Positions 18,789-46,474 of a stretch of 49,547 nucleotides of DNA are shown here, in pieces. Both the position numbers and the translations under genes were made by a program. The stretch comes from Methanoregula sp. (GTDB lineage Archaea; Halobacteriota; Methanomicrobia; Methanomicrobiales; Methanospirillaceae): positions 1 through 49,547 of the forward strand of contig NZ_PMZU01000067.1 of NCBI RefSeq assembly GCF_003170075.1, read 5' to 3'. A model generated the notes under the pieces. It searched no databases. It saw only the letters and a list, made by a program, of their open reading frames with translations, and was not told the DNA's origin. Position 1 is the first letter of the stretch. Each line of letters begins with the position of its first letter.

Positions 18789-19209
18789 ATAAACACCTTG
18801 TGAACCGGTGTGCGGGTATGGGTAAAAAGTCTTTTGAAGTGTAATCTGTGCGAAGTCTCCGGCTTTGGTGTGCCGGGGCTGGCCGCGGTTACGAAAACCA
18901 GGAAACAACTACTATTCATGTTTTACTATTCATGGTTTTAAAGCCGCTTTTTCAATGTATACAAATTGATTTTTAGAAACGGAACGGGATTTTATGGCCG
19001 GACAACAGGAACCCATGCAGAACCAAGTGAATATACCCTGGTGGAGTAACAGGAATACATCATCAAGAAAGGGCCTATAAAAATAGTATTCATAAATAGT
19101 GATGTACAAATATATACCAGAAAGGGTATATGCCGCCGTTTCACACGCGTATATATCGTCATGCGGCGCCAAAAATAATGAAGGATCAACGAGGGAGCGA
19201 CAACAATCC
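18789..19209. other. Intergenic region upstream of giant TPR gene
   Basis: The 420-bp gap contains a direct repeat of TACTATTCATG (at about 18909 and 18925). It also has a 28-codon plus-strand frame at 18994-19080 without a good start signal, and the TATA region of the giant gene. No RNA gene is recognised. Confidence 0.4.
19107..19132 (+). promoter_or_regulatory. TATA region with overlapping dyad, giant TPR gene
   Basis: CAAATATATACC (19107-19118) is a good archaeal TATA box. Together with GGTATATG (19125-19132) it forms an inverted repeat with a 6-bp spacer, 7 of 8 positions pairing, so a regulator could bind over it. Transcription would start near 19140. This puts the ATG at 19099 outside the message and supports the ATG at 19210. 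Confidence 0.5.
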
Positions 19210-22200
19210 ATGAGCAGGAGAGATGCTGAAGCACTGATGCGGCAGGGCATTGAACTCTATGATCTTGGCAGATTCCAGGAAGCTGTGGTCATGTTTGACC
19301 GGGCGCTCACCCTCTTCCCGAAATTACCCAAAGCCCATTACTTCAAAGGTATCGCACTGTATGACCTCGGTAAATACGATGCAGCGGTCGAATCCTACGA
19401 CAATGCGCTGACGCTTGACCCATCCGATATTAATGCGTGGTACAACAAGGCCGCGACTCTTGCACAGGTCGGCAGGAACCGGGAGGCACTCGCTACCTGC
19501 GAACGGCTGATCGCTCTCAAGTACGACAACTCCGAGGCTTGGATCCTCAAGGGAATCGCCCTCTATGAACTTGGGCAGTATCAGGACGCCATATCGGCAT
19601 ACGATCATGCGCTTACCATCGATCCCAGCCATGCAAAGGTCTATTATAACAAAGGCATCGCACTTGCCGATCTCAGCCGGCATGAGGAAGCCATTGTCGC
19701 GTACGGGATGGCGATCGAGATTGTCCCCGAATATTCAAAGGCTTTTTACAATATGGGGATCTCCCTCTACGAGATCGGAAGATATGACGAAGCCCTCGGC
19801 GCCTTTGAAAAGGCACACACTCTTGATCCCTCCGATGCGTGGGTCTGGTATTATCGTTCATTTATTCTCGCAAAACAGGAACGGTATGCCGAAGCGGCCG
19901 AAGCGGCCGGGACATTTCTTAATACCGAACCCGACCACGCGGACATCTGGGTGATAAAGGGGATCGCCCAGTACAAGGAAGGAAAATTTGCCGATGCTGT
20001 AGTATCGCTGGACAACGCAATTTCGCAGAACCCCCTCGTTGCGGATGCCTGGCTCTATAAGGGTTTCTCCCAGTTTGAGCTGGCACGGTACGAGGATGCC
20101 ACGTATGCTCTGGACAAAGCAGCGGAGATGAACCCGACAAATACAAGGATCTTCTTTTTCCGGGGCAAGGCATATCAGCACCTGAGCCGGTTCCGCGAGG
20201 CCGTGGCGGATTTTGACCGGGCAATCGCTGCCGAGCCGGATACTATTGATGCGGTGTACAGTCGGGGTGTCTCCTGCATCTACCTGAGCCGGTACGAGGA
20301 GGCACTTGAGGCATTTACCCGTATTCTCGCCACACAGGGGAATCATGCCGGTGCCTCCTACTTTAAGGGAATTGTCCTTTCACGGCTCGGGAGGCAGACA
20401 GAGGCGATCGAGTCCTTTGAGCATACCCTCTCTGTCGATCCCGGGTGTGCCTCGGCCGCATACCAGATCGGCATATCTTATGCAAGCCTCGGACGCTTCA
20501 GCGAAGCCGTCTCTGCCTATGACCGGGCGCTTAAGATCCGGCCAGATTATTCGGACGCCGTATACCACAAGGGTTTTGCCCTGGCCAAACTGGGAAACAG
20601 CGAGGATGCCATCCGGGAATTTGACAAGGCCTTAAAGGATAATCCGGGCAATGCACAGGCATACCACCAGAAAGGCCAGCTTCTGGCAAAGACCGGCAGA
20701 TATGAGGAAGCCCTGGACTCGCTCAACAAGAGTATCGCCCTCAAGCCAGACAATGCTCAGGCTTGGTACGACAAAGGTAGTGCCCTTTTAAAAGCTGAAC
20801 AGTTACAGCCCGCGATCGAGGCGTTTGATCAGGCAATCGGGATCTACCCCAACTACGTCAAAGCATATTTCAACAAGGGCCTGGCCCTCGTAAAAGAGGG
20901 GGAACTGGACGAGGCACTCCGTGCATTTGACCAGGCCGTAGCGATCGATCCCACCCATACACTTGCATTTTATCACCGGGGTGCAACGCTCTTCAAAAAA
21001 GAGCGGTATGCCGATGCCGTTGCTGCCTACGATGCCGTGCTCGCCCTCGCCCCGAAGAATACGACCGCCCTCTATGAAAAAGGGATCGCTCTCACGCATC
21101 TTGGGCGGTTCAAGGATGCTGTCACCGCATTTGAAGCGGCAGTCGAGCAGAATCCAGGTCTTGCCGATGCCTGGCTCTATAAGGGGATCTGCCATGTCCA
21201 CCTTGGTGCCTCTGATGATGCGATTTCGTCGTTTGACAAGGTAATTGGCCTTAATCCAAAGAATACGGAGGCCATGGTCCGCAAGGGGATGGTACTGGTC
21301 ACCCTGGGCCGGTACGACGAGGCGATCACCATCTTTAACCGCGCCCTTGAGGGCACCCCACGGGATGTCTGGGCTTGGTACTACAAAGGCATCTCTCTAG
21401 CCGAACTTTCCCGGTTTGAAGAGGCAATCAGGTCGTACGAGCGGGTGCTTGAGATCAACCACCGGTGCACCCGTGCATTCTACGAGAAGGGCAATGCCCT
21501 TGCCCGCCTCGGCAAACCGCTAGAAGCGATTATCTCGTACGATCAGGCACTGGAGATCGAGCCCGATAATCAAAAAACCCTTTACCAGAAGGGGATCGCC
21601 CTTGCGCAGCGCGAACGGTACGATGACGCGATCAGGACCTTTGAGCGGATGCTGGTGCTTGAACCGGATAACCCGCACGCGCTCTATTATCTCGGTATCG
21701 CATATGCCGGCCGGGAACGGTACGATGAGGCAATAGGGGCGTTTGAACGATCCCTCAAACATGACCCGGCCAATGCCCTTACCCATCATTATTTGGGGAT
21801 CTCGCTTGGCCAGTGCGAGAGGTACGACGATGCAATCCGGGCATTTTCCGATGCACTAGCTCTTGACGCCTCCAATGCTTCGACATACTATTACCAGGGT
21901 ATCGCGTATCTTCAGTCCCGGAAGTATGAGGAGGCCCTCGCGGCACTCACCACATCAGTGTCGATGAATCCCTCACTTGTCGGGGCGTTCACGTACCAGG
22001 GCATCGCTCTTGCCCGGCTCGGACGACACGACGAAGCAATTTTGGCGCTGAACCGCAGCCTCGCTGCGAATCCATCTCATATGGAGGCGCTGGTCTGCCG
22101 CGGCGAATCGCTCATGGTGCTCCAGCGATATGCGGAAGCGGTGGAAACCTTTGATCGCATCCTTTCCTTAAACCCGAATCTTGTCGATATCTGGATGCAG

Positions 22201-25200
22201 AAAGGAGCCGCACTCGACAAGCTCGTAAAAAAGCAGGATGCACTTGCCGCGTATACCAAGGTGCTGGAGATAGATCCGAACAATGCAGATGGCTGGGTGA
22301 AAAAAGGCATTCTGCTTTCGGATCTGGGCAAGATTTCCGAAGCGGTTACGGCATTCAATAAAGCCCTTGACCTCAATCCCGCGCTTGTCGATATCTGGAT
22401 GCGGAAAGGAGACGCCCTCAATGTCCTCGGGCGGACAGAGGATGCAGCGGATGCATATGTACAGGCTCTCAACCTGAATCCCGATCAGGAAGATGGCTGG
22501 ATCAAAGATGGCAGGGCTCTCTTTGACCTGGGGAGGTATCAGGATGCCATCGATGCCTTCGACAACGCGATCGCCTTAAACCAGCGGAGTACCGGGGCTT
22601 TCCTTTACAAGGGACTCGCCCTTGAAAAGATCAATCGGATAAAAGAAGCGATCCAGGTCTTTGAGGTTCTTCTGGAGATCGACCCCCACAACAGCGACGC
22701 CCAGTACCATATGGGTCTTGCCCTTGCAAACTCCGGCCGGCAAAAAGAGGCATTAGTCTCCTTTGAAGCAGCGATCAAAGAACGGGAATCCTTTGCCCCT
22801 GCGTGGTACAATAAAGGAAAGAGTCTCCTCGGTCTCGGACAGTACCAGGAAGCTATTACTGCGTTTGACCGGGCGCTTGAGATAGAACCCGGTTACACCG
22901 AGGCCTTTTACTACCGGGGATTTGCGCTCTCAAAACTCGGGCGATATAAGGAGGCCATCGACGCACTCGACAGAAATCTTGTAAAGGACACCACAAATTC
23001 TCCCGGATATTACTTCAAAGGTATTGCCCTTTCAAAGTTGGGGAGGTACCAGGAAGCGCTTGACGCGTTTGACCGGGCTTTGATCTATGACCCGGAAAAT
23101 GCACTGGTCTATTACCAGAAAGGACGGGCGTTAGATGGCCTAGACCGGCACCAGGATGCCGTTACCGCGTTTGAGAAAACTCTTGCGCTCAAACCAAAAT
23201 ACACTGAGGCACGGATGCGTAAGGGCATCTCACTCTATAATCTTGGCAGGTTTGCCGAAGCGCTCAGGGATTTCGACCGGACCATTACAGAGAACCCCCA
23301 CAACTTCCATGCATGGTACCAGAAGGGCCGTGCGCTCTTTGACTTAAGCAACTACAACGAAGCCATCGACGCTTACGACCACGCGCTGGATGTGGAGTCC
23401 AACTACCCGGACGCCCATTACCACAAGGGACTCGCTCTCTACGAACTGGGGAGATATGAGGAAGCAATTCTCTCCTTTGACCAGGCACTTGAGAACGATC
23501 CTCATCTTGACAGTGCCCTTTTCCATCGTGGTGCCTCGCTCCTGAAACTTGAACGCTACCGCGAGGCAACACAGGCTTTCAATCAGACACTCGTCCTCCT
23601 CCCCAAGTACGCTCCCGCTCATCATTTCAGGGGTGTCGCACTCGCCGCACAGGGCCTGTACCAGGATTCCATAGATGCGTATGACCGTGCACTTGAATGC
23701 GATCCAAAAAGCGCAGAATCTGCGCTCAACAAGGCTATGTCACTGCACAATCTGGGGCAGGAGGAGGATGCGCTTGCTGCCGCAGGCAAGGCTATAGAGA
23801 TCCGGTCAGATTTTGCCGAAGCATGGAGATATAAGGGACTTATCCTGTTCCATATGGGAAGGTACCCGGAGGTTCTTGAAGCGCTGGACCAGGCTCTTGC
23901 CTGCGATCCGGGAAATGCGCAGCTCTATTACCAGAAAGGCCGGGCCTTCGATGGCCTTGCCCGACATGAGGAAGCGATCCTTGCGTATGATACTGCGCTC
24001 TCCACCCAGCCCGACTGCATTCAGGCGCGGATGCACAAAGGAGAGGCGCTCTCAACGCTGGGCAGGTTCCGCGATGCAGTCGGGGAATTCAAAAAAGTCC
24101 TTGGGACACATCCCGATAATGCCGATGCGTGGTTCCAGAGAGGCCGTGCACTCTTTGACCTTGGAGATTATACTGAAGTTATCGATGCCTGTGACCATGC
24201 GCTCAAACTAAAAGCATCCTATACCGAAGCACACCAGTATAAAGGTCTCGCGCTGTATGAACTGGGCCGGTATGAGGATGCAATCAAGTCCTTTGATAAG
24301 GCAATAAGCATCGATTCACGTCTCGACCGAGCCTTGTACCATCGTGGGGCAGCGCTTTTAAAACTCGAACGTTACCGCGATGCGATTGAGGCGTTTGACC
24401 GGGCATTAGTTCTCGTACCAAACTATGCCACCGCTCATCATCTCAAGGGTGTCGCACTTGCAGCACAGGGATTGTACCAGGAATCTATTCTCTCTTTTGA
24501 GAGAGCACTCCAGTTCGATCCAAAGAGTGCAGAATCTGCGCTTAACAAGGCCATATCGCTGCATAATCTGGGTCAGGAGGAGGATGCCATCCAGGCTTCG
24601 GAAATAGCCATAGAGATCCGGCCGGATTTTGCCGAGGCATGGTATTACAAAGGTGTTGCCCTCTCAACTCTTGGGCGATATGCAGATGCAGTGCCGGCCT
24701 TCTCCCGGTCACTTGAAATTGACAGTACCGATACACATGCCTGGTTCGACATGGGGCTTGACCTGATCCAGCTCTCGCGTAACGAGGAGGCCGTAGCAGC
24801 CTTTGACCATGTTCTTGGCCTGCTTGCAGATTATCCTCAAGCACACTATCATAAAGGGCGGGCCCTTGCTGCGATGGGTAAAAACGAAGATGCTGTTGTC
24901 GCATTTGATCACGCACTGGAGATCACCCCCAAGGATGCGCCCCTTCTTTCAGCTAAAGGTCTGGCCCTTGAAGCATTAAAACACTTCAAGGAGGCTGCCG
25001 CCGTTTTTGAATCTGCTTGTGCGGAAGATCCCGGGTCTGCAGATAATTTCTATCACCTTGGCCTTGCATATGTCGAACTGCAACGGGATGAAAAAGCGGT
25101 CAGTGCCTTTGCAAAAACCCTCAAGATCAGCCCGGACAATACCGATGCGCTGGAGCAGGCGGGACTTGCGCTCGCCCGACTGGAAAAATACGAGGATGCG

Positions 25201-28200
25201 ATCGATGTCTTTGACCGGTGCATCAGGCAGGGCCGGGAAAGCGCCCGTATCCAGTACGAGAAAGGCTGCGCGTATTACGCCCTCAAAAAATATGAGGAAG
25301 CGATCCCTTCCTTTGACCGTGCGATCGAACTGGACAGCAACCATATCGGTGCACTGGTCAAAAAAGGGCAGGCGCTCTCTGAACTTCACCGCTACGATGA
25401 TGCCCTTACCTTCTTTGACCGGGTAATAGCGCTCGATCCTGAAAATGCAATTGCCCATTTTGCCATGGGGACTGCGTTCACGCGGCTTTCCCGGTACGAG
25501 GATGCCGTGATCGCGCTCGATCGCGCCCTTGAATATGACGGCGGCAATGCCCGGATACATGCGTGCAAGGGATACGCCCTCTACCGACTCAACCGTTTCA
25601 AGGAAGCCGCCGAATCATTTGCAAAGGCGCAAAAACGCCAGTCTAAAGATGCCTTTACCCTGCTTTACCGGGGAAAATCCCTCCTGCACAACGAGCAGTG
25701 GGAGGAGGGCATTGCAGCGTTTGACAAGCTGCTGGCCCTTGACGGGAAGAACGCGGCTGCCTGGTACTATAAAGGCATCGCGTACTCCCACCTTGCGCTT
25801 CACGATGAAGCGCAGGATGCATTCGAACAGGCGCTTGCAATCGACGAAAATTGTGCGGCAGGATGGTACCAGAAAGGACTGGTGCTCTTTGAACGGGAAC
25901 GCTTTGACGAGTCGCTGCCGGCGTTCGAGCGCGCACTGGTGATCGCCCCCGGTGTTCAGGACTACGCATTCAGGAAGGCGCTTGCCCTCTTTATGCTGGA
26001 GCGGTACCAGGAGTCCTCCAATATCTTTGATCTGGCACTAACGCTGGGCCCGGAGACGTCCGTCATCCAGTATTACCGGGGCCGGGCACTCATGGAGATC
26101 AAAGATTTTCCAAAGGCACTCGATGCGCTCAACCAGGCGCTCGCCCTCGACCCGGAGAACTCATTTATCTGGCTTGCAAAAGGTGAAGTCCTGTTCCACG
26201 AAAATGATGGCGCTGCAGCGGTATCTGCCTTTGACCAGGCTCTTTTGCTTGACCCGAAATCCGTTGAGGCCGCATTCTATAAAGGTGAATCCCTCGCGTT
26301 GCAGGGCAATGACGAAGAGGCAGTCCATGCGTACGATCTCGCCCTTGGCCTCGATCCATCATACCCCGAAGCCGCTTACAGGAAAGGGCTGGTGTTGTTC
26401 CGGCTGAAGAATTATGCCGGGGCTGTTGAGGCCTGCGATCAGGCAATCCAGTTTGTGCCCGAACACGCACACGCGCACTACGAGAGGGGACTGGCTCTTT
26501 TTGCTCTCGGGAAATATGAAAAAGCGATACGATCCTTTAAGCATGCCCTTGAACATGACCCCTCATTAAAGGATGCGCTTTTCCAGTCCGGGCTGGCGTA
26601 TGCCGCTATGAGCAGGTACACGCAGGCAGTCACCTCATTTGACAAACTGCTGGAACTTGAACCGCAGAACGCGGAGGCGCTGTACCACAAGGGGCGCATG
26701 CTCGCAAAACTCAGGAAAACCGATGAGTCACTGAGCGTGCTCGATGCATCCCTCAACATCGAGAACAACGTTGCCGATGTCTGGCTTCTCAAGGGGAGTG
26801 TGCTTCTTGATCTGGAGAAACTGGAGAGTGCACTGGAAGCCTTCGATCGTGCCCTTGCCCTGACCCCGGATAACATTACTGCCTGTTACCGTAAGGGAAA
26901 GACCTTTGTCGGGCTTCGCAATTATCCGGATGCGATTCGCTGCTTTGACCGGGTCATTGCTGCCGATCCCGGCTGCGCACCGGCCTGGTTCCGGAAAGGC
27001 AGTTCTCTCTTATCAGGTGGTGATCTCAAAGGCGCAATAGAGGCACTTACAAAAGCCCTCGAACTTAAACCCGATAATGCAAACGGGTGGTATGACCGGG
27101 CCGTTGCACTCGCAGGTCTTGAGAGGTTCGAAGAGGCAATCCCCTCCTATGACCGGGCGCTTGCCCTGAATCCGAAGTACGCCAGCGCTTATTACGATAA
27201 GGGTACTGCGCTTGCCCGTCTCGGCCGTGACCGGCAGGCAATCGACGCCTTCGAAATGGCCTCTTCGATCGATCCGAACTTCTCTTTTGCTTATTTCGAA
27301 AAGGGGCTGGCACTTGCTCGGCTCTCAAAAAACAAGGATGCGATAGCTGCCTTTGATGCAGCGATCGCCATCAATGCATCCAGTGCGCCGGCATTCCTGA
27401 ACAAGGGGCACGCCCTTGTAAATCTCAAAAAATTCGGCGAAGCCGTTGTTGCATTTGATTCTGCCATCAAATTGGATCCGTCAGACTACAATGCATGGTT
27501 TGCAAAGGGCTGTGCTCATTCCCAACTCAGGCAGTACGATGACGCGGTTGCTGCCTTTGATCGTGCACTTAGCATCGACAAAAACCAGTACCTGGCATAT
27601 CACGAAAAAGGTGTGGCGCTTGCGCGACTCGGCCAGTACGAGGATGCAGTCACAGCACTCTCTGAGGCCATCTCTCTTGATGACAAGAAACCGGAGACCC
27701 ATTATGAGAAAGGCTGTGCGCTGTTCGAGTTGGGGCACGACAAGGAGGCTGTCACCGCGTTTGGCCGGGTTCTTGAGCTGGACGCCACGTTTGCTGATGC
27801 TGCCTATATTTTGGGTCTTGCTCTGGAACACCTCGGCCGATACGCTGACGCGATAACGGCATTTGATGGTATGCTCTCCCATGCACCGGATCATTTCGGG
27901 ACCTGGTACCACCGTGGCCTTGCGTCGGCGCAGATCGGAAAAGACGATGATGCAGTACAGGCCTTTGAGAAAGCCCGCCAGATCGAGCCTCACGACATTC
28001 CTCTGCTATTCTCTGAAGGAAAGGCATGGTACCGTCTGGAACAGTATGAGGATGCGCTCCATCTCTTTGACATTGCACTTGGGAAGGAACCGGGCAATGG
28101 CGAGATCCTTTTTGAGAAAGGAAAGACCCTTGCCATTCTGGATCGGCATGACGAAGCACAGGAAATCTTCCGTCTTGCCTTTACCCAGCTCGCTGACAAC

Positions 28201-31200
28201 TACGAACCTGCTTATCTCCGGGCCCAGTCGCTGGTCGTGCTCGAACGGTACGAGGAAGCCGACATGGCCTTTGACGCTGCGCTGTCGCTTAACCCCGATA
28301 ACCCTGATATCTTGTTCAAAAAAGGCGGAGCGCTTATGCATACCGGCCATTACGAGGCGGCAATCGCGGCGTATGACCGGGCAATTGCACTCCGGCCTGA
28401 TGATCCCGGGGTGCATCTGGAGCGGGGCCGGGCTTTTGCTGCCCTCAAGAAGTACGAAGACGCCATCGGTTCGTTTGACCGGGTGCTTGAGATTAAGCCA
28501 TCGGATCCAACTGCCAGTTTCGAACGTGGGAGAGCGCTCTTTTATATCGAAAAATACGAAGAAGCGCTTGCGGCGGTTGATGTTGGTCTTGATGGCGATC
28601 CGAAAAACACTGATGCCCTGTATTTCCGTGCAGCTTCACTTGCTGCTCTGGAACACTACACAGAGGCCGCAGAATCGTTCGAGCGCCTGCTGGTGTACAC
28701 CCCGGAGGATGCCGAAACCTGGTACGAGCAGGGTTGCGTTCTTGCCCGGCTCCGGCACTTCGAGGACGCCATCGCAGCATTCGACCGTGCCCTCAACTTA
28801 AATCCGGAGCATTTCGAAGCACAGTTCCAGAAAGCCCGCTCGTTTGACCTGCTGGGACAGTACAGCGAGGCAATTGAGAGTTATTCAGAGGCCCTCGCCA
28901 TCCGGCCTTTGGATACAAAGACGCTCTGTTACAAGGGGGTCGCGCTTTCACGGAGCGGGCGTTCTGAAGATGCAGTAAAAGCATTTGACGCCGCGCTGGA
29001 GATTGATCCGGTCTTTGCCGATGCACTCTTTGAGAAAGGCAGGGCACTTGTTACGCTGGGTATGTTCCGCGAGGCGGTCAAGACCTTTGACAAGACACTG
29101 CTTATCGACAAGAATTATACCGGGGTCTATTTCTATAAAGGACTTGCTCTTGCAGATCTGGGAAGGCATGACGATGCGATCCTCGCGTTTAACAAGGCCA
29201 TTGATCTCGATGCCGGTAACACTGATGCATTCTATCACAAAGGAATCTCCCTTGCTGCAACCGGTAAACTCGATGACGCGATTGAGGCATTTGATCATGT
29301 GATCCAGTCCACTCCGGATTCAGTCCCCGGATGGCTCCACCGGGGGATGGTGCTCTACGATCTCGGGAAATACAACGACGCCATCGAATCATATGGAAAA
29401 ACGCTGGAAATTGATCCGGCCAATGCAGATGCGTGGTACCTGAAGGGCCGTGCAATCCAGGCTCTCAACAACTTTGGTGATGCGGTTGAGGCATTCAACA
29501 GGGCGCTCGAAACAAAGCCCGATTTCACGGACGCGCATTACTACAAGGGCCGGACGCTCTTTGAACTGGGCAAGTACAACGAGGCTGTTCTCTCATATGA
29601 CAACGCCATTGCCCTTCGCCCTAAGCACGATGAAGCGCTGTACTACAAAGGAATGGCGCTCCTGCGACTCCTGAGGCCCGAGGATGCGGCCACCACCTTC
29701 GATCTTGCGCTCCGGCTCCGCCCGAACTACGCGTATATCTGGACCGGTAAAGGGATGGCCCTTGCTGCCCTTGACCGTCACGAGGACGCGATCACCTGTT
29801 ATTCCAAAGCCATCGGCCTTGACAAGAAGGATGCCCGTGCGTATTACCAGTCCGGGCTCTCGCTTTCAGCCTTGAGCCGGTACCAGGATGCGATAAAAAA
29901 CTTCGATGCGGCGCTTGTACAGCACCCGAAATATGCCCCGGCATTCTATGCAAAAGGGCGGGCCTTGTGCGGAGTCGCCATGTACCAGGAAGCGATCAAC
30001 GCATTCGACCGGGCCCTCTCCGAACATGCCGACTATCCCGAAGCGTGGCTCCACCGGGGGATCGCAGAGGCAAACCTGGACCGGTACGAGGATGCACTGG
30101 ACTGCTATAACCACGCCCTTGCAATCAACGCCTCATACGCTCCGGCGCTTCTCAATCTGGGCCGGGCATTTATTCACCTGGGCAGGACCGGCGAAGCTCT
30201 GGATGCGTTTGAAAAAGTCCTTGCCCTCCAGCCGGAATCAGCGGAGGCGTATTATTACAAGGGGCTTGCCCACGTAAAGAAAGAGCAGGACGATGAGGCG
30301 GTTGATGCGTTCAACCATGCGATCGCCATCAACCGGCAGTATGCAGAAGCGTACCATTACAAAGGTGTTGTGCTTGCCCGCCACGAGCAGTATGAGGAAG
30401 CGGTAGCCTCGTTTGATGCAGCATTGCGGATCAAAAGTGATTATCCTGATGCCCTGTACGAGAAGGGTAGATCCCTGTTCCATCTGGGGAAATACAAGGA
30501 TGCTATTGCGGTCTTTGACCAGGCATTGTCTGCCAACCCGGGATATGCCGACGCAATCTTCCAGAAAGGGCGGGCCTATATTGAACTCCGGAATACCGAC
30601 GGGGCAATCAGGGCATTCGACCGGGCGCTGGAGATAAATCCGTCCTGCTATCAGGCACACTACTGGAAAGCCCGTACCTTAAATGACGAGGGCAGTTATG
30701 ATGAAGCCATCACGGAGTACGACCGTGCCATTGCCATAAAACCGGATTCTGCCGAACTTTACCGGGATCGCGGCCTTGCCTATGCAGCGATTGAACAGTA
30801 CCGCGATGCCATCAAGTCATACGACCGGGCACTGGAACTCGATCCCCATGGCGCCGACTCTTTCTCCCACAAGGGAGCATCCTTGGCCGAGCTTGGCATG
30901 TACCGTGATGCGCTCGAATCGTTTGAGAAAGCACTGGAAAAGAACCCAGAACTTGCAACCGCCTGGTTTGGCAAAGGAAACGCTCTCTACGATATCGGGA
31001 AGTTTTCTGAAGCAAGAGATGCGTATGACGAAGGTCTCAAACTGGACCCGGAGAATGCAGTCGGCTGGACCCGGAGGGGAATGTCCTTTGCCGGCCTGAA
31101 GAACCATAAGGCCGCGATTGAATCCTATGACCGGGCCATTGCAATCGATCCCTCGTTCTCGATTGCATACTTTACCAAGGGGAGTGCCTTTGAGGCGCTC

Positions 31201-31449
31201 GGGCAGTTTGAGGATGCAGCAGAGTCATACCGTGCGATGATCTCTCTCCAGCCGGATTTTGTCGATGCATGGATCCATCAGGGTCGTGCCCTGAAGGAAC
31301 TTGAGAAATTTCAGGAAGCCCTGACCTCGTTCAAACGTGCACTGGAGATCGATCCCTCTCGTAAAGAGGTCTGGAATGATATCGGGGCGACGCTGGACAA
31401 ACTGGGCAAGCATGAGGAAGCAAAGATCTGCTACGATAAGGCGCAGTAA
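19210..31449 (+). CDS. Giant all-TPR protein, 4079 aa, about 120 repeats
   Basis: The protein is 6 residues, then 119 complete 34-residue TPR units, then a final 27-residue unit (6 + 119 x 34 + 27 = 4079), with no net insertion. The unit start predicted from this register for unit 45 (base 23716) and unit 55-like positions agrees with the sequence. A typical unit is KGIALYDLGKYDAAVESY plus DNALTLDPSDI. There is no signal peptide, membrane helix or other domain, so a cytosolic super-helical scaffold for protein partners is likely; the partners are unknown. I start at ATG 19210 (MSRRDAEALMRQGIELYDLG), downstream of the TATA region. The open frame begins at 19099, and the extra 37 residues are unlike TPR. 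It is monocistronic and no neighbour suggests a partner. Confidence 0.95.
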   Translation: MSRRDAEALMRQGIELYDLGRFQEAVVMFDRALTLFPKLPKAHYFKGIALYDLGKYDAAVESYDNALTLDPSDINAWYNKAATLAQVGRNREALATCERLIALKYDNSEAWILKGIALYELGQYQDAISAYDHALTIDPSHAKVYYNKGIALADLSRHEEAIVAYGMAIEIVPEYSKAFYNMGISLYEIGRYDEALGAFEKAHTLDPSDAWVWYYRSFILAKQERYAEAAEAAGTFLNTEPDHADIWVIKGIAQYKEGKFADAVVSLDNAISQNPLVADAWLYKGFSQFELARYEDATYALDKAAEMNPTNTRIFFFRGKAYQHLSRFREAVADFDRAIAAEPDTIDAVYSRGVSCIYLSRYEEALEAFTRILATQGNHAGASYFKGIVLSRLGRQTEAIESFEHTLSVDPGCASAAYQIGISYASLGRFSEAVSAYDRALKIRPDYSDAVYHKGFALAKLGNSEDAIREFDKALKDNPGNAQAYHQKGQLLAKTGRYEEALDSLNKSIALKPDNAQAWYDKGSALLKAEQLQPAIEAFDQAIGIYPNYVKAYFNKGLALVKEGELDEALRAFDQAVAIDPTHTLAFYHRGATLFKKERYADAVAAYDAVLALAPKNTTALYEKGIALTHLGRFKDAVTAFEAAVEQNPGLADAWLYKGICHVHLGASDDAISSFDKVIGLNPKNTEAMVRKGMVLVTLGRYDEAITIFNRALEGTPRDVWAWYYKGISLAELSRFEEAIRSYERVLEINHRCTRAFYEKGNALARLGKPLEAIISYDQALEIEPDNQKTLYQKGIALAQRERYDDAIRTFERMLVLEPDNPHALYYLGIAYAGRERYDEAIGAFERSLKHDPANALTHHYLGISLGQCERYDDAIRAFSDALALDASNASTYYYQGIAYLQSRKYEEALAALTTSVSMNPSLVGAFTYQGIALARLGRHDEAILALNRSLAANPSHMEALVCRGESLMVLQRYAEAVETFDRILSLNPNLVDIWMQKGAALDKLVKKQDALAAYTKVLEIDPNNADGWVKKGILLSDLGKISEAVTAFNKALDLNPALVDIWMRKGDALNVLGRTEDAADAYVQALNLNPDQEDGWIKDGRALFDLGRYQDAIDAFDNAIALNQRSTGAFLYKGLALEKINRIKEAIQVFEVLLEIDPHNSDAQYHMGLALANSGRQKEALVSFEAAIKERESFAPAWYNKGKSLLGLGQYQEAITAFDRALEIEPGYTEAFYYRGFALSKLGRYKEAIDALDRNLVKDTTNSPGYYFKGIALSKLGRYQEALDAFDRALIYDPENALVYYQKGRALDGLDRHQDAVTAFEKTLALKPKYTEARMRKGISLYNLGRFAEALRDFDRTITENPHNFHAWYQKGRALFDLSNYNEAIDAYDHALDVESNYPDAHYHKGLALYELGRYEEAILSFDQALENDPHLDSALFHRGASLLKLERYREATQAFNQTLVLLPKYAPAHHFRGVALAAQGLYQDSIDAYDRALECDPKSAESALNKAMSLHNLGQEEDALAAAGKAIEIRSDFAEAWRYKGLILFHMGRYPEVLEALDQALACDPGNAQLYYQKGRAFDGLARHEEAILAYDTALSTQPDCIQARMHKGEALSTLGRFRDAVGEFKKVLGTHPDNADAWFQRGRALFDLGDYTEVIDACDHALKLKASYTEAHQYKGLALYELGRYEDAIKSFDKAISIDSRLDRALYHRGAALLKLERYRDAIEAFDRALVLVPNYATAHHLKGVALAAQGLYQESILSFERALQFDPKSAESALNKAISLHNLGQEEDAIQASEIAIEIRPDFAEAWYYKGVALSTLGRYADAVPAFSRSLEIDSTDTHAWFDMGLDLIQLSRNEEAVAAFDHVLGLLADYPQAHYHKGRALAAMGKNEDAVVAFDHALEITPKDAPLLSAKGLALEALKHFKEAAAVFESACAEDPGSADNFYHLGLAYVELQRDEKAVSAFAKTLKISPDNTDALEQAGLALARLEKYEDAIDVFDRCIRQGRESARIQYEKGCAYYALKKYEEAIPSFDRAIELDSNHIGALVKKGQALSELHRYDDALTFFDRVIALDPENAIAHFAMGTAFTRLSRYEDAVIALDRALEYDGGNARIHACKGYALYRLNRFKEAAESFAKAQKRQSKDAFTLLYRGKSLLHNEQWEEGIAAFDKLLALDGKNAAAWYYKGIAYSHLALHDEAQDAFEQALAIDENCAAGWYQKGLVLFERERFDESLPAFERALVIAPGVQDYAFRKALALFMLERYQESSNIFDLALTLGPETSVIQYYRGRALMEIKDFPKALDALNQALALDPENSFIWLAKGEVLFHENDGAAAVSAFDQALLLDPKSVEAAFYKGESLALQGNDEEAVHAYDLALGLDPSYPEAAYRKGLVLFRLKNYAGAVEACDQAIQFVPEHAHAHYERGLALFALGKYEKAIRSFKHALEHDPSLKDALFQSGLAYAAMSRYTQAVTSFDKLLELEPQNAEALYHKGRMLAKLRKTDESLSVLDASLNIENNVADVWLLKGSVLLDLEKLESALEAFDRALALTPDNITACYRKGKTFVGLRNYPDAIRCFDRVIAADPGCAPAWFRKGSSLLSGGDLKGAIEALTKALELKPDNANGWYDRAVALAGLERFEEAIPSYDRALALNPKYASAYYDKGTALARLGRDRQAIDAFEMASSIDPNFSFAYFEKGLALARLSKNKDAIAAFDAAIAINASSAPAFLNKGHALVNLKKFGEAVVAFDSAIKLDPSDYNAWFAKGCAHSQLRQYDDAVAAFDRALSIDKNQYLAYHEKGVALARLGQYEDAVTALSEAISLDDKKPETHYEKGCALFELGHDKEAVTAFGRVLELDATFADAAYILGLALEHLGRYADAITAFDGMLSHAPDHFGTWYHRGLASAQIGKDDDAVQAFEKARQIEPHDIPLLFSEGKAWYRLEQYEDALHLFDIALGKEPGNGEILFEKGKTLAILDRHDEAQEIFRLAFTQLADNYEPAYLRAQSLVVLERYEEADMAFDAALSLNPDNPDILFKKGGALMHTGHYEAAIAAYDRAIALRPDDPGVHLERGRAFAALKKYEDAIGSFDRVLEIKPSDPTASFERGRALFYIEKYEEALAAVDVGLDGDPKNTDALYFRAASLAALEHYTEAAESFERLLVYTPEDAETWYEQGCVLARLRHFEDAIAAFDRALNLNPEHFEAQFQKARSFDLLGQYSEAIESYSEALAIRPLDTKTLCYKGVALSRSGRSEDAVKAFDAALEIDPVFADALFEKGRALVTLGMFREAVKTFDKTLLIDKNYTGVYFYKGLALADLGRHDDAILAFNKAIDLDAGNTDAFYHKGISLAATGKLDDAIEAFDHVIQSTPDSVPGWLHRGMVLYDLGKYNDAIESYGKTLEIDPANADAWYLKGRAIQALNNFGDAVEAFNRALETKPDFTDAHYYKGRTLFELGKYNEAVLSYDNAIALRPKHDEALYYKGMALLRLLRPEDAATTFDLALRLRPNYAYIWTGKGMALAALDRHEDAITCYSKAIGLDKKDARAYYQSGLSLSALSRYQDAIKNFDAALVQHPKYAPAFYAKGRALCGVAMYQEAINAFDRALSEHADYPEAWLHRGIAEANLDRYEDALDCYNHALAINASYAPALLNLGRAFIHLGRTGEALDAFEKVLALQPESAEAYYYKGLAHVKKEQDDEAVDAFNHAIAINRQYAEAYHYKGVVLARHEQYEEAVASFDAALRIKSDYPDALYEKGRSLFHLGKYKDAIAVFDQALSANPGYADAIFQKGRAYIELRNTDGAIRAFDRALEINPSCYQAHYWKARTLNDEGSYDEAITEYDRAIAIKPDSAELYRDRGLAYAAIEQYRDAIKSYDRALELDPHGADSFSHKGASLAELGMYRDALESFEKALEKNPELATAWFGKGNALYDIGKFSEARDAYDEGLKLDPENAVGWTRRGMSFAGLKNHKAAIESYDRAIAIDPSFSIAYFTKGSAFEALGQFEDAAESYRAMISLQPDFVDAWIHQGRALKELEKFQEALTSFKRALEIDPSRKEVWNDIGATLDKLGKHEEAKICYDKAQ
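23104..24735 (+). repeat. Tandem duplication of 8 TPR units (2 x 816 bp)
   Basis: Units 39-46 (23104-23919) and 47-54 (23920-24735) align unit by unit. Examples are KSAESALNKAMSLHNLGQEE versus KSAESALNKAISLHNLGQEE, and RGASLLKLERYREA versus RGAALLKLERYRDA. The offset is exactly 816 bp = 8 x 102. Identity is far above that of other unit pairs. This shows how the array grew. Confidence 0.85.
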
Positions 31450-31945: not shown

Positions 31946-32070
31946 GTTGGTTTTATTGATTTTCATGGTATGGTTCGGGGTTAATGGGGATGTTTTGTTT
32001 CTCCAGCGCCCTGTTTTTATTTCGATCCTTGTGCGGGACTTTGCGAAAAAATAAGAAAATTTTTGGCTTA

Positions 32071-32784
32071 TCAGTATTTCTTCCTGACCGCGACAACCCA
32101 GAGCGCAGCACAGATAAGTGCAATTGCAGCCAGAACGATCTCCACATCATATTTTATATAAAACGGTGTCTCGGTTGCCGCCAGTTTTTCTGCAATGTCA
32201 AGGTTGGCCTGGAGATTAGGATAGTTGGGGTCCAGTTCCTCTACCTTCTGGAATGCGACGACGCCCTCGTTGCACCTGCCCATACCGCAAAGAGCGTACG
32301 CCTTGTTAAACCATGCATCCGCATTGTCCGGTTCGACACTGATGGCTTTTTCAAAGGAATCCAGTTGTTCGTTATAATACAGACTTGCGTTGGTCTTGTC
32401 ATTGAGCTGGTTCTGATAATAAGCACCGATCGTATAGAGGATCTGCCCGTGGTTTATCCATTCGTTTGCAGACGATGCATTCAGCGCCAGCGCCTGGTTC
32501 GAATTAGCAAGGGCCATGTTCAGGGTGGCGAGGGGATCGGCGGTGTACTGGTTTGCACGGTTGAGAGCATCCGCCTTGCCGTCCCAGGCCGCGGCATAGT
32601 TGGGATCGAGGGCGATTGCCTGATCATAAGCCTGGAAGGCTTCTGTGTAATTTTTCTGGTCTGTCAGGTTACGCCCGAGTGCGGTCCATCCTGCAGCATC
32701 GGTTGGAGCCGCTGCTGCGGCTGGTGTAAGGACAAAGATGCTCAGCACAAGGAGGAGCATCACGAAAATGATGGCACTGGATCT
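32071..32784 (-). CDS. Exported membrane-anchored TPR protein
   Basis: The ATG at 32784 (MRSSAIIFVMLLLVLSIFVL) gives a normal signal peptide; an ATG 8 codons upstream is also in frame. After an Ala-rich cleavage region come about four TPR units (GWTALGRNLTDQKNYTEAF; ADAWFNKAYALCGMGRCNEG) to about residue 200. A C-terminal membrane helix (VEIVLAAIALICAALWVVAV) and RKKY follow. The repeats should face outside the cell, held by the C-terminal anchor. Same family architecture as 45476-46474. Probable role in surface protein assembly (inference). Confidence 0.8.
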   Translation of the reverse strand, partial: RSSAIIFVMLLLVLSIFVLTPAAAAAPTDAAGWTALGRNLTDQKNYTEAFQAYDQAIALDPNYAAAWDGKADALNRANQYTADPLATLNMALANSNQALALNASSANEWINHGQILYTIGAYYQNQLNDKTNASLYYNEQLDSFEKAISVEPDNADAWFNKAYALCGMGRCNEGVVAFQKVEELDPNYPNLQANLDIAEKLAATETPFYIKYDVEIVLAAIALICAALWVVAVRKKY

Positions 32785-32846
32785 CATATCACGCAATATA
32801 TGAAGCACGGTTCCCTCATAAGAATTACTCCATCAACACGGAAAAA

Positions 32847-33821
32847 TTATCCCTGTTTCCGGAGTACAAGGATATGACGTGTGAGGCTCTTGTGCACCCT
32901 CTGGGTATGGTGCTGGAGCACGGTCATGTGTTGTGCTGCAATACTGGAGATATCCTGGTGAGTGACCACGATTGCACGGCGACCGATCATCAGGACACGG
33001 TTGATCTCGTCGAGAGCATCGTGATATAGGTGCTCCATGGTGTCGGCTTTTTTTATGCAGACCGACTGACCGTAGGGAAAATCTGTCACGACCTCATCCA
33101 CGGTCTGGTCTTTTATCGGAAGCCGGGTCGTGTCGCCAAGGAGGAGCACACTTTGCTTCACATTCTCTTTACTTCCCCGGATCATCATCGGATCAAAGTC
33201 AATTCCCACCGCATGGAGCCCGAGCATCTCCGCCTCGATCAGGATCCCCCCGGTCCCACAGAACGGGTCAAGCAAGGTAGTCCCGGCCTCCGCAAGAGAG
33301 AGATTGACAAGAGTCCGTGCCATCCGTGGCATCATGACCCCGGGATGAAAAAATTCGCGTTTGCCCGGGTTACGCTCGTTATATGCCCCACGATCGATCC
33401 TGAACAGAACTTTCCCGAAATAACACCGGTCCTTTGAAAGGATCGCCCGGTACTCCTCGATTGGGTTGATGAGCTGGACCGGCCCGGTGATCATGGTTCC
33501 GATCAATCGTTCAAACTCCCGCTGGGAGCAGGGGTTTTTCTCCTGGCAGCCATCATGGACCAGTTTGGCCCGGCCGGAGAATGGCTGATTGGTGGTTATG
33601 GAGAGATCTGTAAGTAGGTGCCGGAACGAGGTAATTTCCGGGGCGCATTCACCCAGGTACTCAAGCACTACATGGGTCATTGCGAGACGCAGGGCCGCGG
33701 CCGGTACCGGGCATTCCGCGACGGCAACCTGCGGCCGCGTATCAATCACTGATGCAACGCATTCAATCTCCGCACACGGCAGGGTCGGGTTCTCACCGGA
33801 CAGCTCAAAAAGGAGCTTCAT
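32847..33821 (-). CDS. Trm11/TrmG10-type RNA N2-guanosine methyltransferase
   Basis: The 324-residue protein has a C-terminal Rossmann methylase with motif I DPFCGTGGILIEAEMLGLHA and motif IV DFPYG, a variant of the DPPY motif of N2-guanosine methylases. Together with a non-catalytic N-terminal half it matches archaeal proteins that methylate G10 in tRNA. The THUMP domain is short or divergent, so the tRNA target is inferred. Phe in place of the first Pro of DPPY may alter the active site slightly. It stands alone, convergent with no close partner. Confidence 0.75.
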   Translation of the reverse strand: MKLLFELSGENPTLPCAEIECVASVIDTRPQVAVAECPVPAAALRLAMTHVVLEYLGECAPEITSFRHLLTDLSITTNQPFSGRAKLVHDGCQEKNPCSQREFERLIGTMITGPVQLINPIEEYRAILSKDRCYFGKVLFRIDRGAYNERNPGKREFFHPGVMMPRMARTLVNLSLAEAGTTLLDPFCGTGGILIEAEMLGLHAVGIDFDPMMIRGSKENVKQSVLLLGDTTRLPIKDQTVDEVVTDFPYGQSVCIKKADTMEHLYHDALDEINRVLMIGRRAIVVTHQDISSIAAQHMTVLQHHTQRVHKSLTRHILVLRKQG

Positions 33822-33900
33822 CTTTTATATATGGGACACATCCCCACAAATACCTGCGCGAATTACCAGACAAAAATTATACCTCACGTGGGATCTGATT

Positions 33901-34460
33901 GTGAAAAAATTATTCTTTTTAACTCTCTTTGCGGCATTGTAATTGTCGGATGCGTGTCAGCAGCAACTCCCGCAGATAACCAGACTGTGAACGAGACAGC
34001 CACCACCGCCCCACAGCTTATCGGCGGGGATATGGGAACCTACCTTGTCAAGGCAAATGCCGATGGGGCAAATGTTACCTTTGATTCGGATTTCAAGGGT
34101 ATCACGAAGGAGGGTCAGCTGAAAGTCGAAGTCTGTACGACCGGAATGCCGTACCGTGTCATCACCGTTGAAAAGTCCGGGTATGCTGTCTACACGGCAA
34201 ACATAACATCAGTCCCGGCGAAAAACGAGACAGTTGAGATCCCGGTGACCCTCATCCCGCTCGCAGCGGCAAACACGACGGCCCAGCAGGCAAATGCGAC
34301 CGCCACGGAAGCAGCAGGTTCCCCGGCCAATGTTACTGCCGACGTAACAACTACCGTGGCAACCGCAACTGCAACCTCACCGGCGCCGACCCAGTCAGGC
34401 AGTCTGCCGTTTGCCGCCTTTGACATCATCGGTACCCTTGCGATCCGGTCAAGGCGCTAA
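33901..34460 (+). pseudogene. Secreted PEGA-like protein with frameshifted signal peptide
   Basis: A signal peptide starts at GTG 33901 (VKKLFFLTLFAAL) but hits TAA after 13 codons. The rest of the gene is in the +1 frame, where the upstream part reads IILFNSLCGIVIVGCVSAAT, also signal-like. Adding one A to the A6 run after GTG, or a shift near GCATTG, restores one frame. The body (about 70 residues, VTFDSDFKGITKEGQLKVEV) resembles a PEGA surface domain, followed by a Thr/Ala-rich stalk. The usual C-terminal anchor is cut to FDIIGTLAIRSRR, lacking a full helix. It is probably inactive, or expressed only after slippage. Confidence 0.55.
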
Positions 34461-34851: not shown

Positions 34852-35709
34852 TTACACCCTGCGCCGGACTACCATGCCGCACCCGGCTAGCGCGAGAACG
34901 GCGATCACCGCTCCCGCATCCGGTGCGTCTGCTTTCTTTGTTGGTGGTGCAGCGAAGTCCAGATCCTCAGAAAGCATTGTGGTCTCACCGGATTTTACCG
35001 TGATGTTCTTTGTGAGGGTAAGATATCCGTCTGCCTCCAGCATGACCTCATGCTGGCCCGGTGTTATTCCGGGAAACGTTCCGGGGCTCTCCCCGGCATA
35101 GATCGTATCGATATACACATGTACGTGTTCTGGGGATGAATTGACCTCAATTGCGCCAAGCGGTGACACAGTTGTAGTCTGTGCAACCTGTGCTTTTGCC
35201 GGATCGATCACTGTGTGCTTCAGGCTGGGAAGTACTGAAGAATCTGTGAGCTGGCATGAATATCCATCAGGGAAGGTAACTGTTGTGACTTTCGGAGAGA
35301 AATCAGCGGAGATCACTGAGCTTACGGCAGAGTTCTCAAGGGCGATCTGAGCTTTCTTGAAGTCCATAGATGTGGTCTGGTACTCCGTCCCGGTCGGTAC
35401 ATCGTTCATCACGGCAAAATTTTTCAGGTAGAGATCTGCACCAGACTTGTCAAACGAGAGGATCTCAGGAGGATCCGAGCTTGTTGTCAGTCCTTTTACC
35501 AGCTGTTCCCGGAGTGTGGATTCGGGGATGACATTCTCAATCACACCCTCAAGGGTATATTTGAACGTGGCAGTGGCATCGCCGTTTTTTGCGACCGTGA
35601 TACTGAGGGAATCTGCCGTGAATGCCTGGACCGGGGCAACAAGGAGAAGCACGAGGCAGATGATACCACACAGGGAGGCCAGATGCAGAGTTTTTTCGGG
35701 AAACATCAT
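34852..35709 (-). CDS. Secreted PEGA-domain surface protein
   Basis: I start at the ATGATG at 35709, giving a signal peptide (LHLASLCGIICLVLLLVAPV) ending near AFTADS. Residues about 25-175 are an unassigned beta-rich region. About 195-265 form a PEGA domain (GAIEVNSSPEHVHVYIDTIY; ESPGTFPGITPGQHEVMLEA). The C-terminus is a typical archaeal surface-protein anchor: a short linker (KKADAPDAG), a helix (AVIAVLALAGCGMVV) and RRRV, a PGF-CTERM-like layout. It should be displayed on the cell surface. Ligand unknown. Confidence 0.8.
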   Translation of the reverse strand: MMFPEKTLHLASLCGIICLVLLLVAPVQAFTADSLSITVAKNGDATATFKYTLEGVIENVIPESTLREQLVKGLTTSSDPPEILSFDKSGADLYLKNFAVMNDVPTGTEYQTTSMDFKKAQIALENSAVSSVISADFSPKVTTVTFPDGYSCQLTDSSVLPSLKHTVIDPAKAQVAQTTTVSPLGAIEVNSSPEHVHVYIDTIYAGESPGTFPGITPGQHEVMLEADGYLTLTKNITVKSGETTMLSEDLDFAAPPTKKADAPDAGAVIAVLALAGCGMVVRRRV

Positions 35710-35864
35710 GGTGATCACGTAGCACACATACTGTTGTCAGTATACCAGATTAGGACTTTTTTTGACGATATAGGTTGACATCCTTCGCTCCTATTATCGG
35801 GCAGGAACAAAAGAGGCGGTGCCTCATGTTGATATAGGCAGTTTGCGCAATATCTGTACCATTC

Positions 35865-45475: not shown

Positions 45476-46474
45476 TCAATTCTTCCGACGCTTTGCGCCA
45501 GCAAATACAATTCCGGCCACCACAATTGCCGTAAGAGCACCGATGGATGAGAGCGGAGTATACGTCGTCTTCGTTGCAACCTGTGTTTCCGTCGCGGTCA
45601 CGGCAATGGTGCCGGCAGGCAACGATTCTGTTACATTCACAGCAGTCTGCGCCGCTGCGGTGGTGGGAACCGTTGCAGGGGAGGTCCCCCCACCCAAAAC
45701 CCACGGTGCCTTTGTCGGGGTCGGCGAGCCGGTTACCTGATAGACCTGGGACTTACCCATCACAGATTCCTTGTTCTTTTCCGCATCGGCATACACAGGG
45801 CTGATTGTCAGCGCCGCATTGAAGCAGTCCAGCGCATCCTGGTAACGTCCCAGTGCAGCAAGCGCGAGACCCTTGTTGTTCCAGATCTCGGCACTCTTGG
45901 TTGTTTCTTGGGTTGCATGATTGAACGCATCGAGCGCTTCAGTGTACTTGTCCTGCGACATGTACACAAGTCCAATCTGGTTCCAGGTATCCGCATTATG
46001 AGGGTCGAGATTCGCACACTGGGCATACGCTTTGAGCGCGGCATCCGGGTTTCCTGTCTGGACATACGAGGATGCAAGGTTACAGTATGCATCCGCATGG
46101 TTGGTCACCGTGGCAGTAAAATTCACATACGCGGCAACGGCTTCATCGTACCTGCCAAGTTTAAAGAGCGCATAGGCCATGGCATCCTGCGCATCGGTGC
46201 TTGTCCTTATCGCAAGGGCCTGATTTGCTGCATCGAGCGCCTCAGAGTACTGTCCCAGCGCATTGAGGGCCACGGCTTTTCCCGCGAAGGCAGACGCATA
46301 CGAGGGATCCAGCGAGAGCGCATTGTTATAGTACGTCACAGCATCTGCGTAATTCCCGACAGTTGCAGCATTCTGTCCTCTCGTATACCACTCAAGGGAG
46401 TCTTCCGCTGCTACAGCAGGGACCAGAATAAGAATAATTACAAGCAGTATGCCTGCCTTTGCGCTCATCTGCAT
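45476..46474 (-). CDS. Exported membrane-anchored TPR protein
   Basis: The 332-residue protein has a signal peptide (AKAGILLVIILILVPAVAAE). About six TPR units follow (WYTRGQNAATVGNYADAVTY; AWNQIGLVY-type units) to about residue 235, then a Thr/Ala/Pro linker, a C-terminal helix (IGALTAIVVAGIVFAGA) and KRRKN. Same plan as 32071-32784: an extracellular TPR module on a C-terminal anchor. It could hold surface proteins together. About 90 bp of AT-rich DNA separate it from the M20 gene, convergent. Confidence 0.85.
   Translation of the reverse strand: MQMSAKAGILLVIILILVPAVAAEDSLEWYTRGQNAATVGNYADAVTYYNNALSLDPSYASAFAGKAVALNALGQYSEALDAANQALAIRTSTDAQDAMAYALFKLGRYDEAVAAYVNFTATVTNHADAYCNLASSYVQTGNPDAALKAYAQCANLDPHNADTWNQIGLVYMSQDKYTEALDAFNHATQETTKSAEIWNNKGLALAALGRYQDALDCFNAALTISPVYADAEKNKESVMGKSQVYQVTGSPTPTKAPWVLGGGTSPATVPTTAAAQTAVNVTESLPAGTIAVTATETQVATKTTYTPLSSIGALTAIVVAGIVFAGAKRRKN

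What the first reader, a model, noticed from the sequence alone, without database searches (positions are those of the whole stretch)
19210..31449. A 4079-residue protein made of 120 TPR units in perfect 34-residue register
The length fits 6 + 119 x 34 + 27 residues exactly, and unit boundaries hold at the interior points I checked (for example base 23716 = 19228 + 44 x 102). TPR proteins normally have 3-16 units with caps or extra domains. Here no cap, linker, signal peptide, membrane helix or other domain is visible. An uninterrupted array would be a super-helix of about 15-17 turns, assuming the usual 7-8 units per turn. Selection against any indel suggests that its length or pitch matters, as in a ruler or scaffold.
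Basis: partly seen in the sequence, partly recalled or inferred. Interest (0 to 1): 0.8.

Follow-up and report, generated by a model that had tools for sequence, protein, structure and literature searches.

The report
Giant TPR rod grows by whole turns
A methane-producing archaeon makes one very long, uninterrupted coil-shaped (TPR) protein, and in its relatives this protein grows and shrinks almost only by steps of 8 repeats, which is one full turn of the coil, suggesting that the direction in which its two ends face is under selection.

Summary
The ORF at 19210-31449 encodes 4079 aa: 6 residues, 119 full 34-aa TPR units and a 27-aa last unit. Every spacing is 34, with no other domain. It is a real, old gene: 33 of the 39 genomes held for its genus (Methanoregula by record titles) carry it, as does a sister genus, with dN/dS about 0.08.

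The main new result comes from comparing orthologues unit by unit. Array lengths in the genus are 112, 120, 128, 136 and 144 units, plus 135, 151 and 159 in one clade. Insertions and deletions are 8 units or multiples of 8, at several separate sites; the only other size is 7, in one clade here and once in the sister genus. Insertions whose source can be traced are tandem copies of the neighbouring 8 units. Eight TPRs make one turn of the TPR superhelix. Outside recent duplications the DNA shows no lag-8 similarity, and a paralogous TPR array in the same genus has a lag-1-dominated pattern instead.

I read this as selection for whole turns, so that two conserved ends keep a fixed rotational phase on a cytoplasmic rod about 100-145 nm long. 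Quantised length is shown; phase selection and the scaffold role are inferred. The partner is unknown.

The parts
19210..31449 (+). gene for the 4079-aa, 120-unit TPR superhelix protein
   Evidence: the N-terminal start at ATG 19210 (M..DAE..LL/M-RQG) is conserved in orthologues, so the longer GTG start at 19099 is unlikely
19228..31446 (+). 119 full 34-aa TPR units plus a final 27-aa unit, all in register
19228..19941 (+). units 1-7, the most conserved end (66-81% per unit across clades)
   Evidence: dN/dS about 0.05 in the first 40 units of the L053/L054 pair
21370..21471 (+). unit 22, after which many orthologues carry 8 (or 15) extra units
23002..23817 (+). units 38-45, first copy of an 8-unit (816 bp) tandem duplication
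   Evidence: 60% aa identity to units 46-53 at lag 8
23818..24633 (+). units 46-53, second copy of the 8-unit duplication
28918..31446 (+). units 96-120, conserved C-terminal end, colinear in the genus orthologues
   Evidence: modelled within the 30-unit AlphaFold2 job
32071..32808 (-). convergent neighbour: about 245-aa TPR protein with N-terminal signal/TM and C-terminal TM helix; conserved next to the giant gene in many relatives, but not required with it
   Evidence: the overlapping + ORF 31984-32877 has no family match and is probably spurious
32847..33821 (-). TIGR01177-type methyltransferase, next gene in the conserved neighbourhood

Best explanation
The gene makes a single-domain cytoplasmic TPR superhelix used as a long, stiff scaffold. 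SHOWN: array length changes almost only by 8 units (7 in two lineages), by tandem duplication or loss of blocks; the ends are more conserved than the middle; inner-groove residues are more conserved than equally variable outer residues. FROM THE LITERATURE: eight TPRs make one superhelical turn of about 7.2 nm, so 120 units are 15 turns, roughly 108 nm, and 112-159 units are roughly 100-145 nm. INFERRED: only whole-turn changes are tolerated because the two conserved ends, and whatever lies along the groove, must keep the same facing. The middle then works as a spacer that can be lengthened or shortened by turns without twisting one end against the other. The likely role is a spacer or ruler that holds partners at its ends at a set distance and angle. 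The partners are unknown.
For: Unit counts: 112 x2, 120 x7, 128 x5, 136 x4, 144 x2, 151, 159 and 135 among 23 genes of the genus; 20 of 23 are multiples of 8. At least 10 length changes on the tree; the counts need only one that is not a multiple of 8, and 9 or more of 10 by chance at 1/8 each is about 7e-8. The first 20 genes suggested the rule; three found later fitted (136, 112, 112). Indels lie at separate sites, near units 22-30, 43-60, 67-74 and 75-112. Traceable inserts match the adjacent block best at lag 8. Outside recent duplicates neither protein nor DNA prefers lag 8. A paralogous TPR array in the same genus is lag-1 dominated. One turn of the model fits a 16-repeat consensus TPR at 2.2 A over 266 aa; eight repeats per turn: PMC7885266, PMC12060649. 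Ends versus middle. Groove versus convex: 0.48 versus 0.38 identity, difference 0.10, 95% CI 0.06-0.14. Intact copies lie in single-contig genomes G010, G033, G017, G020, G068 and G070 (read).
Against: No partner, expression data or phenotype is known. Two lineages changed by 7 units, which would shift phase by about 45 degrees if the turn is exactly 8. An 8-unit periodic stripe in surface conservation, expected if one side docks along its length, is only weak and inconsistent. Some genomes of the genus appear to lack the gene (for example G024, 94% complete), so it is not essential. The groove signal is clear at the N end, weaker in the middle and not significant at the C end, and vanishes if semi-buried positions are put in the comparison set.
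Confidence: 0.55

Rival explanations
1. The 8-unit step is set by a partner, not by the ends: the groove or outer face binds a periodic or extended partner whose spacing matches one turn, as nebulin matches actin, and added turns add binding sites.
For: Groove positions are conserved unit by unit, most at the N end. Weak period near 8 in some conservation profiles: L053 clade groove p 0.004 in the 7.5-8.5 band, L108/L109 all positions p 0.008.
Against: No persistent 8-unit super-repeat in sequence, which an identical site on every turn would leave. The periodicity is not seen in most clades or properties tested.
Confidence: 0.25
2. Mutational bias: duplications of about 816 bp arise more often for recombination reasons, for example from a higher-order 8-unit repeat, and no selection for phase is involved.
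For: Once an 8-unit tandem copy exists, further lag-8 exchange is easy; this may explain the repeated copies at one site in L056/L057 and L045/L050.
Against: Outside recent copies lag-8 DNA similarity is ordinary (46.2% against 45.3-46.9% for other lags; lag 1 is highest) and long exact matches are no commoner. First copies arose at separate sites. The 8-unit difference in L046 near unit 74 goes with a 40-aa unit, so that junction is not an exact in-register exchange. A paralogous array in the same genus shows lag-1 decay.
Confidence: 0.17
3. An ordinary long TPR adaptor whose length drifts neutrally, or an assembly artefact.
For: TPR proteins are common and expand readily in these archaea.
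Against: Quantised lengths, intact reading frames in complete single-contig genomes, dN/dS 0.07-0.10 overall, and diverged units that assembly cannot collapse.
Confidence: 0.03

Closest known systems
Consensus-designed TPR superhelices (CTPR8/16; PDB 8chy, 9qhb)
   Same: 34-aa units in unbroken register, right-handed superhelix; one turn of the model superposes at 2.2 A over 266 aa
   Different: designed, with near-identical units and far fewer repeats; here natural, 112-159 diverged units
TPR superhelix of O-GlcNAc transferase (PDB 1w3b)
   Same: natural TPR superhelix; 388 aa align at 3.0 A, Z 31.1
   Different: about a dozen units leading into a catalytic domain; here no other domain
Nebulin and titin, muscle length rulers
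   Same: giant repeat proteins whose length is thought to matter and varies by groups of repeats (own knowledge)
   Different: they keep a sequence super-repeat matched to a filament; here none persists, and the step equals the protein's own superhelical turn; fold unrelated
Recently amplified TPR arrays (PMC5074805)
   Same: TPR arrays amplified separately and to different extents in orthologues
   Different: those amplify near-identical units; here units are old and diverged and change comes in whole turns

Membership tests
TPR proteins (PF00515/PF07719) | 34-aa two-helix units with the W/L-G-Y/L-A-F-A-P pattern | tested here: met
CTPR-type superhelix | eight units per right-handed turn | tested here: inconclusive
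Nebulin/titin-type ruler | persistent sequence super-repeat matching a partner's period | tested here: not met
   no lag-8 similarity outside recent duplications
Nebulin/titin-type ruler | length of the protein sets the length of a cell structure | not testable with these tools
   needs length-variant strains and microscopy
MamA (magnetosome TPR scaffold, NF040959) | scores above the curated cut-off as a MamA equivalog over a MamA-length protein | tested here: inconclusive
   a 680-aa piece passes the cut-off only by summing 7 generic TPR stretches; magnetosome genes were not looked for

The most novel reading that the evidence does not exclude
A natural solenoid protein whose length evolves in whole superhelical turns because the rotational phase between its ends is under selection: a phase-locked ruler of about 14-20 turns in archaea.
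Probability: 0.5. Interest if true: 0.78.

Novelty: new variant of a known kind. Interest (0 to 1): 0.64.

Why it matters
It is rare for sequence comparison alone to reveal a geometric rule in a protein's evolution. Here the quantum of change equals one turn of the coil, at several separate places in the chain, which makes selection on the pitch and phase of a solenoid directly testable. It also offers a natural series of rods of 14-20 turns for materials and single-molecule work, and points to an unknown structure about 100-145 nm long in methanogen cells.

Tried and rejected
Higher-order repeat of 8 units as the source of the pattern: not found outside recent duplicates. Conserved neighbour (TPR-TM, 32071-32808) as obligate partner: rejected, because it occurs without a detectable giant gene in G016 and G028 and about 46 kb away in G010. 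Periodic surface stripe (charge, hydropathy, conservation): only weak signals among many tests, not used. Groove conservation against all variable positions: no difference; it appears only against exposed convex positions of equal paralogue variability. Unit alignment with the 196-unit gene of another family (G037): not alignable. Literature on giant TPR proteins in Methanoregula, or on turn-sized expansion: nothing relevant in the open library; subscription papers were not searched. An early unit count with a low threshold gave spurious half-units, replaced.

Full report
CHECK OF THE OBSERVATION. The frame 19210-31449 (+) encodes 4079 residues. A position matrix built from its units gives 119 full units at exact 34-residue spacing and a final 27-residue unit; the worst in-register score is 29.4 bits and the best off-register score is -2.0. 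Pfam finds TPR-type families only. Units are 31% identical on average at protein and 46% at DNA level, so the array is old, not a recent or artefactual expansion. The one strong internal duplication is units 38-45 to 46-53, eight units apart, at 60% identity.

ORTHOLOGUES. The last 8 units find orthologues in 31 of 39 genomes of the genus, the window's included, at 58-88% identity. The N-terminal piece adds G002 and G026, where the C-terminal end is missing or only partial, so 33 genomes carry it. In the whole family 36 genomes of two genera match the N-terminal piece. Record titles name Methanoregula. Two complete genomes have contig lengths (2,542,943 and 2,820,858) that, from memory, are M. 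boonei 6A8 and M. formicica SMSP. Among the 17 genera of the family only two have it; other families of the order show only generic TPR similarity.

LENGTH RULE. I cut every complete orthologue into units and aligned them unit by unit. Unit counts in the genus are 112 (2), 120 (7), 128 (5), 136 (4), 144 (2), 135, 151 and 159. Two of these carry short N gaps and were counted across them: L051 as 7 + 1 + 120, L052 as about 135. Pairwise indels are 8, 16 or 24 units, at separate sites; longer paired 'deletion plus insertion' stretches in the middle are diverged, unalignable zones and were not counted as indels. The one exception in the genus is a 7-unit difference near unit 25 shared by L052, L056 and L057. 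Three genomes found after the rule was seen had 136, 112 and 112 units. In the sister genus the counts are 128, 112, 121 and 121, plus an array cut by a contig end at 94 units whose missing end is 18 units in the aligned relatives; the two 121s share a 7-unit loss, and the others differ by 8 or 16. On the tree of the last 30 units at least 10 length changes are needed in the genus. With a chance of 1/8 each, 9 or more multiples of 8 in 10 has probability about 7e-8. That calculation treats the parsimony minimum as independent events and is only a guide.

SOURCE OF THE BLOCKS. Most inserted blocks match the neighbouring block at lag 8 (0.43-0.85 identity, next-best lag usually 0.31-0.41); two older ones (L053 against L108, and L053 units 67-74 against L046) show no clear source, so they may be losses in the other lineage. 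Outside such duplicates the arrays show no special similarity at lag 8 in protein or DNA; lag 1 is highest and the others are level. A paralogous TPR array in the same genus ('MED-x-AMQYYNEG' type) has 56% unit identity, with lag 1 highest and a decay with distance, the mark of one-unit expansion. Recombination by homology therefore does not explain a preference for 8.

STRUCTURE. AlphaFold2 on the last 30 units (23 orthologues) gives mean pLDDT 94.1, pTM 0.48, and helix pairs throughout. One turn superposes on 16-repeat CTPR 9qhb (2.2 A, 266 aa, Z 29.9) and 388 aa on the OGT superhelix 1w3b (3.0 A, Z 31.1). Published work states that eight CTPR repeats complete a superhelical turn (PMC7885266, PMC12060649, the latter giving 7.2 nm length for CTPR8), or seven to eight with a pitch of about 72 A (PMC4191447). 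From this, 120 units are 15 turns or about 108 nm; this is an extrapolation, not a measurement. The size 7 in two lineages also fits 'about one turn'.

SELECTION. dN/dS is 0.07-0.10 overall, lowest near the N end in the L053/L054/L055 comparison (about 0.05 in the first 40 units, 0.08-0.13 in the middle). Per-unit conservation across clades is 66-81% for units 1-7, and mostly 35-60% for the alignable part of units 41-95. Positions of the concave TPR surface (2, 5, 9, 12, 13, 33, 34 in PMC1261162) are as variable between units as exposed helix-B positions (0.137 and 0.142) but more conserved between orthologues: 0.48 against 0.38, difference 0.10, CI 0.06-0.14; strongest at the N end (0.57 against 0.40), not significant at the C end. 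So the groove probably binds something, unit by unit, at least in the N-terminal part.

INDEL TOLERANCE. Most orthologues have a 33-aa unit six units before the last, and some have one or two others; in the cases read, the missing residue lies at the end of the unit, in the turn before the next. L046 has a 40-aa unit at unit 74, next to the place where it is 8 units shorter than L053. The window and its nearest relatives have none. 'Perfect register' is thus a local property; the family rule is whole turns.

NEIGHBOURHOOD. A convergent TPR protein with a signal/TM N-terminus and a C-terminal TM helix (32071-32808, -) and a TIGR01177-type methyltransferase follow the gene in about 24 loci of both genera. 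In G010 and G068 the TPR-TM gene is elsewhere, and in G016 and G028 it exists without a detectable giant gene, so it is a stable neighbour rather than a required partner. No functional link to upstream genes (ZnuABC-type transporter, DtxR-type regulator) is evident; of the orthologous loci read, only L039 shares the regulator.

INTERPRETATION. Shown: a conserved giant TPR array whose length is quantised in steps of about one superhelical turn. Inferred: the relative facing of its ends, or of sites along the rod, is under selection, as expected for a rigid spacer or scaffold. Rivals are a partner with one-turn periodicity, and a mutational bias not visible in the sequence.

Noticed in passing
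L075/L076 (G037:C6:153775-173931): A single open frame of 6719 aa with 196 TPR units in another family of the same order; its N-terminus (KIGGKTAEEW..GYHEKDP) recurs in L106 of G057. It does not align with the window gene.
   Followed up: partly
L069, L071, L072, L074: Other long TPR arrays in the same genus (MED..QYYNEG type, up to 88-89 units, 56% unit identity) with lag-1 decay and a half-unit (17 aa) irregularity in two of them.
   Followed up: partly
L046 unit 74: A 40-aa unit lies next to the place where L046 is 8 units shorter than L053: an uneven junction whose net change is still 8 units.
   Followed up: partly
L065 (G015:C1:1900800-1920700): In a single-contig genome the orthologue is split over at least two frames; sequencing error or decay was not distinguished.
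   Followed up: no
window 32071-32808 (-): Small TPR protein with signal/TM and C-terminal TM helix, conserved and convergent with the giant gene; the overlapping + frame 31984-32877 has no family match and is probably spurious.
   Followed up: partly
window 45476-46474 (-): A second TPR protein of 332 aa in the window.
   Followed up: no
window 33831-34460 (+) and 34852-35727 (-): Two proteins with PEGA domains close together.
   Followed up: no
units of L053-L055 and L108/L109: Weak period near 8 units in some conservation profiles (band p 0.004-0.02), not consistent across clades and one of many tests.
   Followed up: partly
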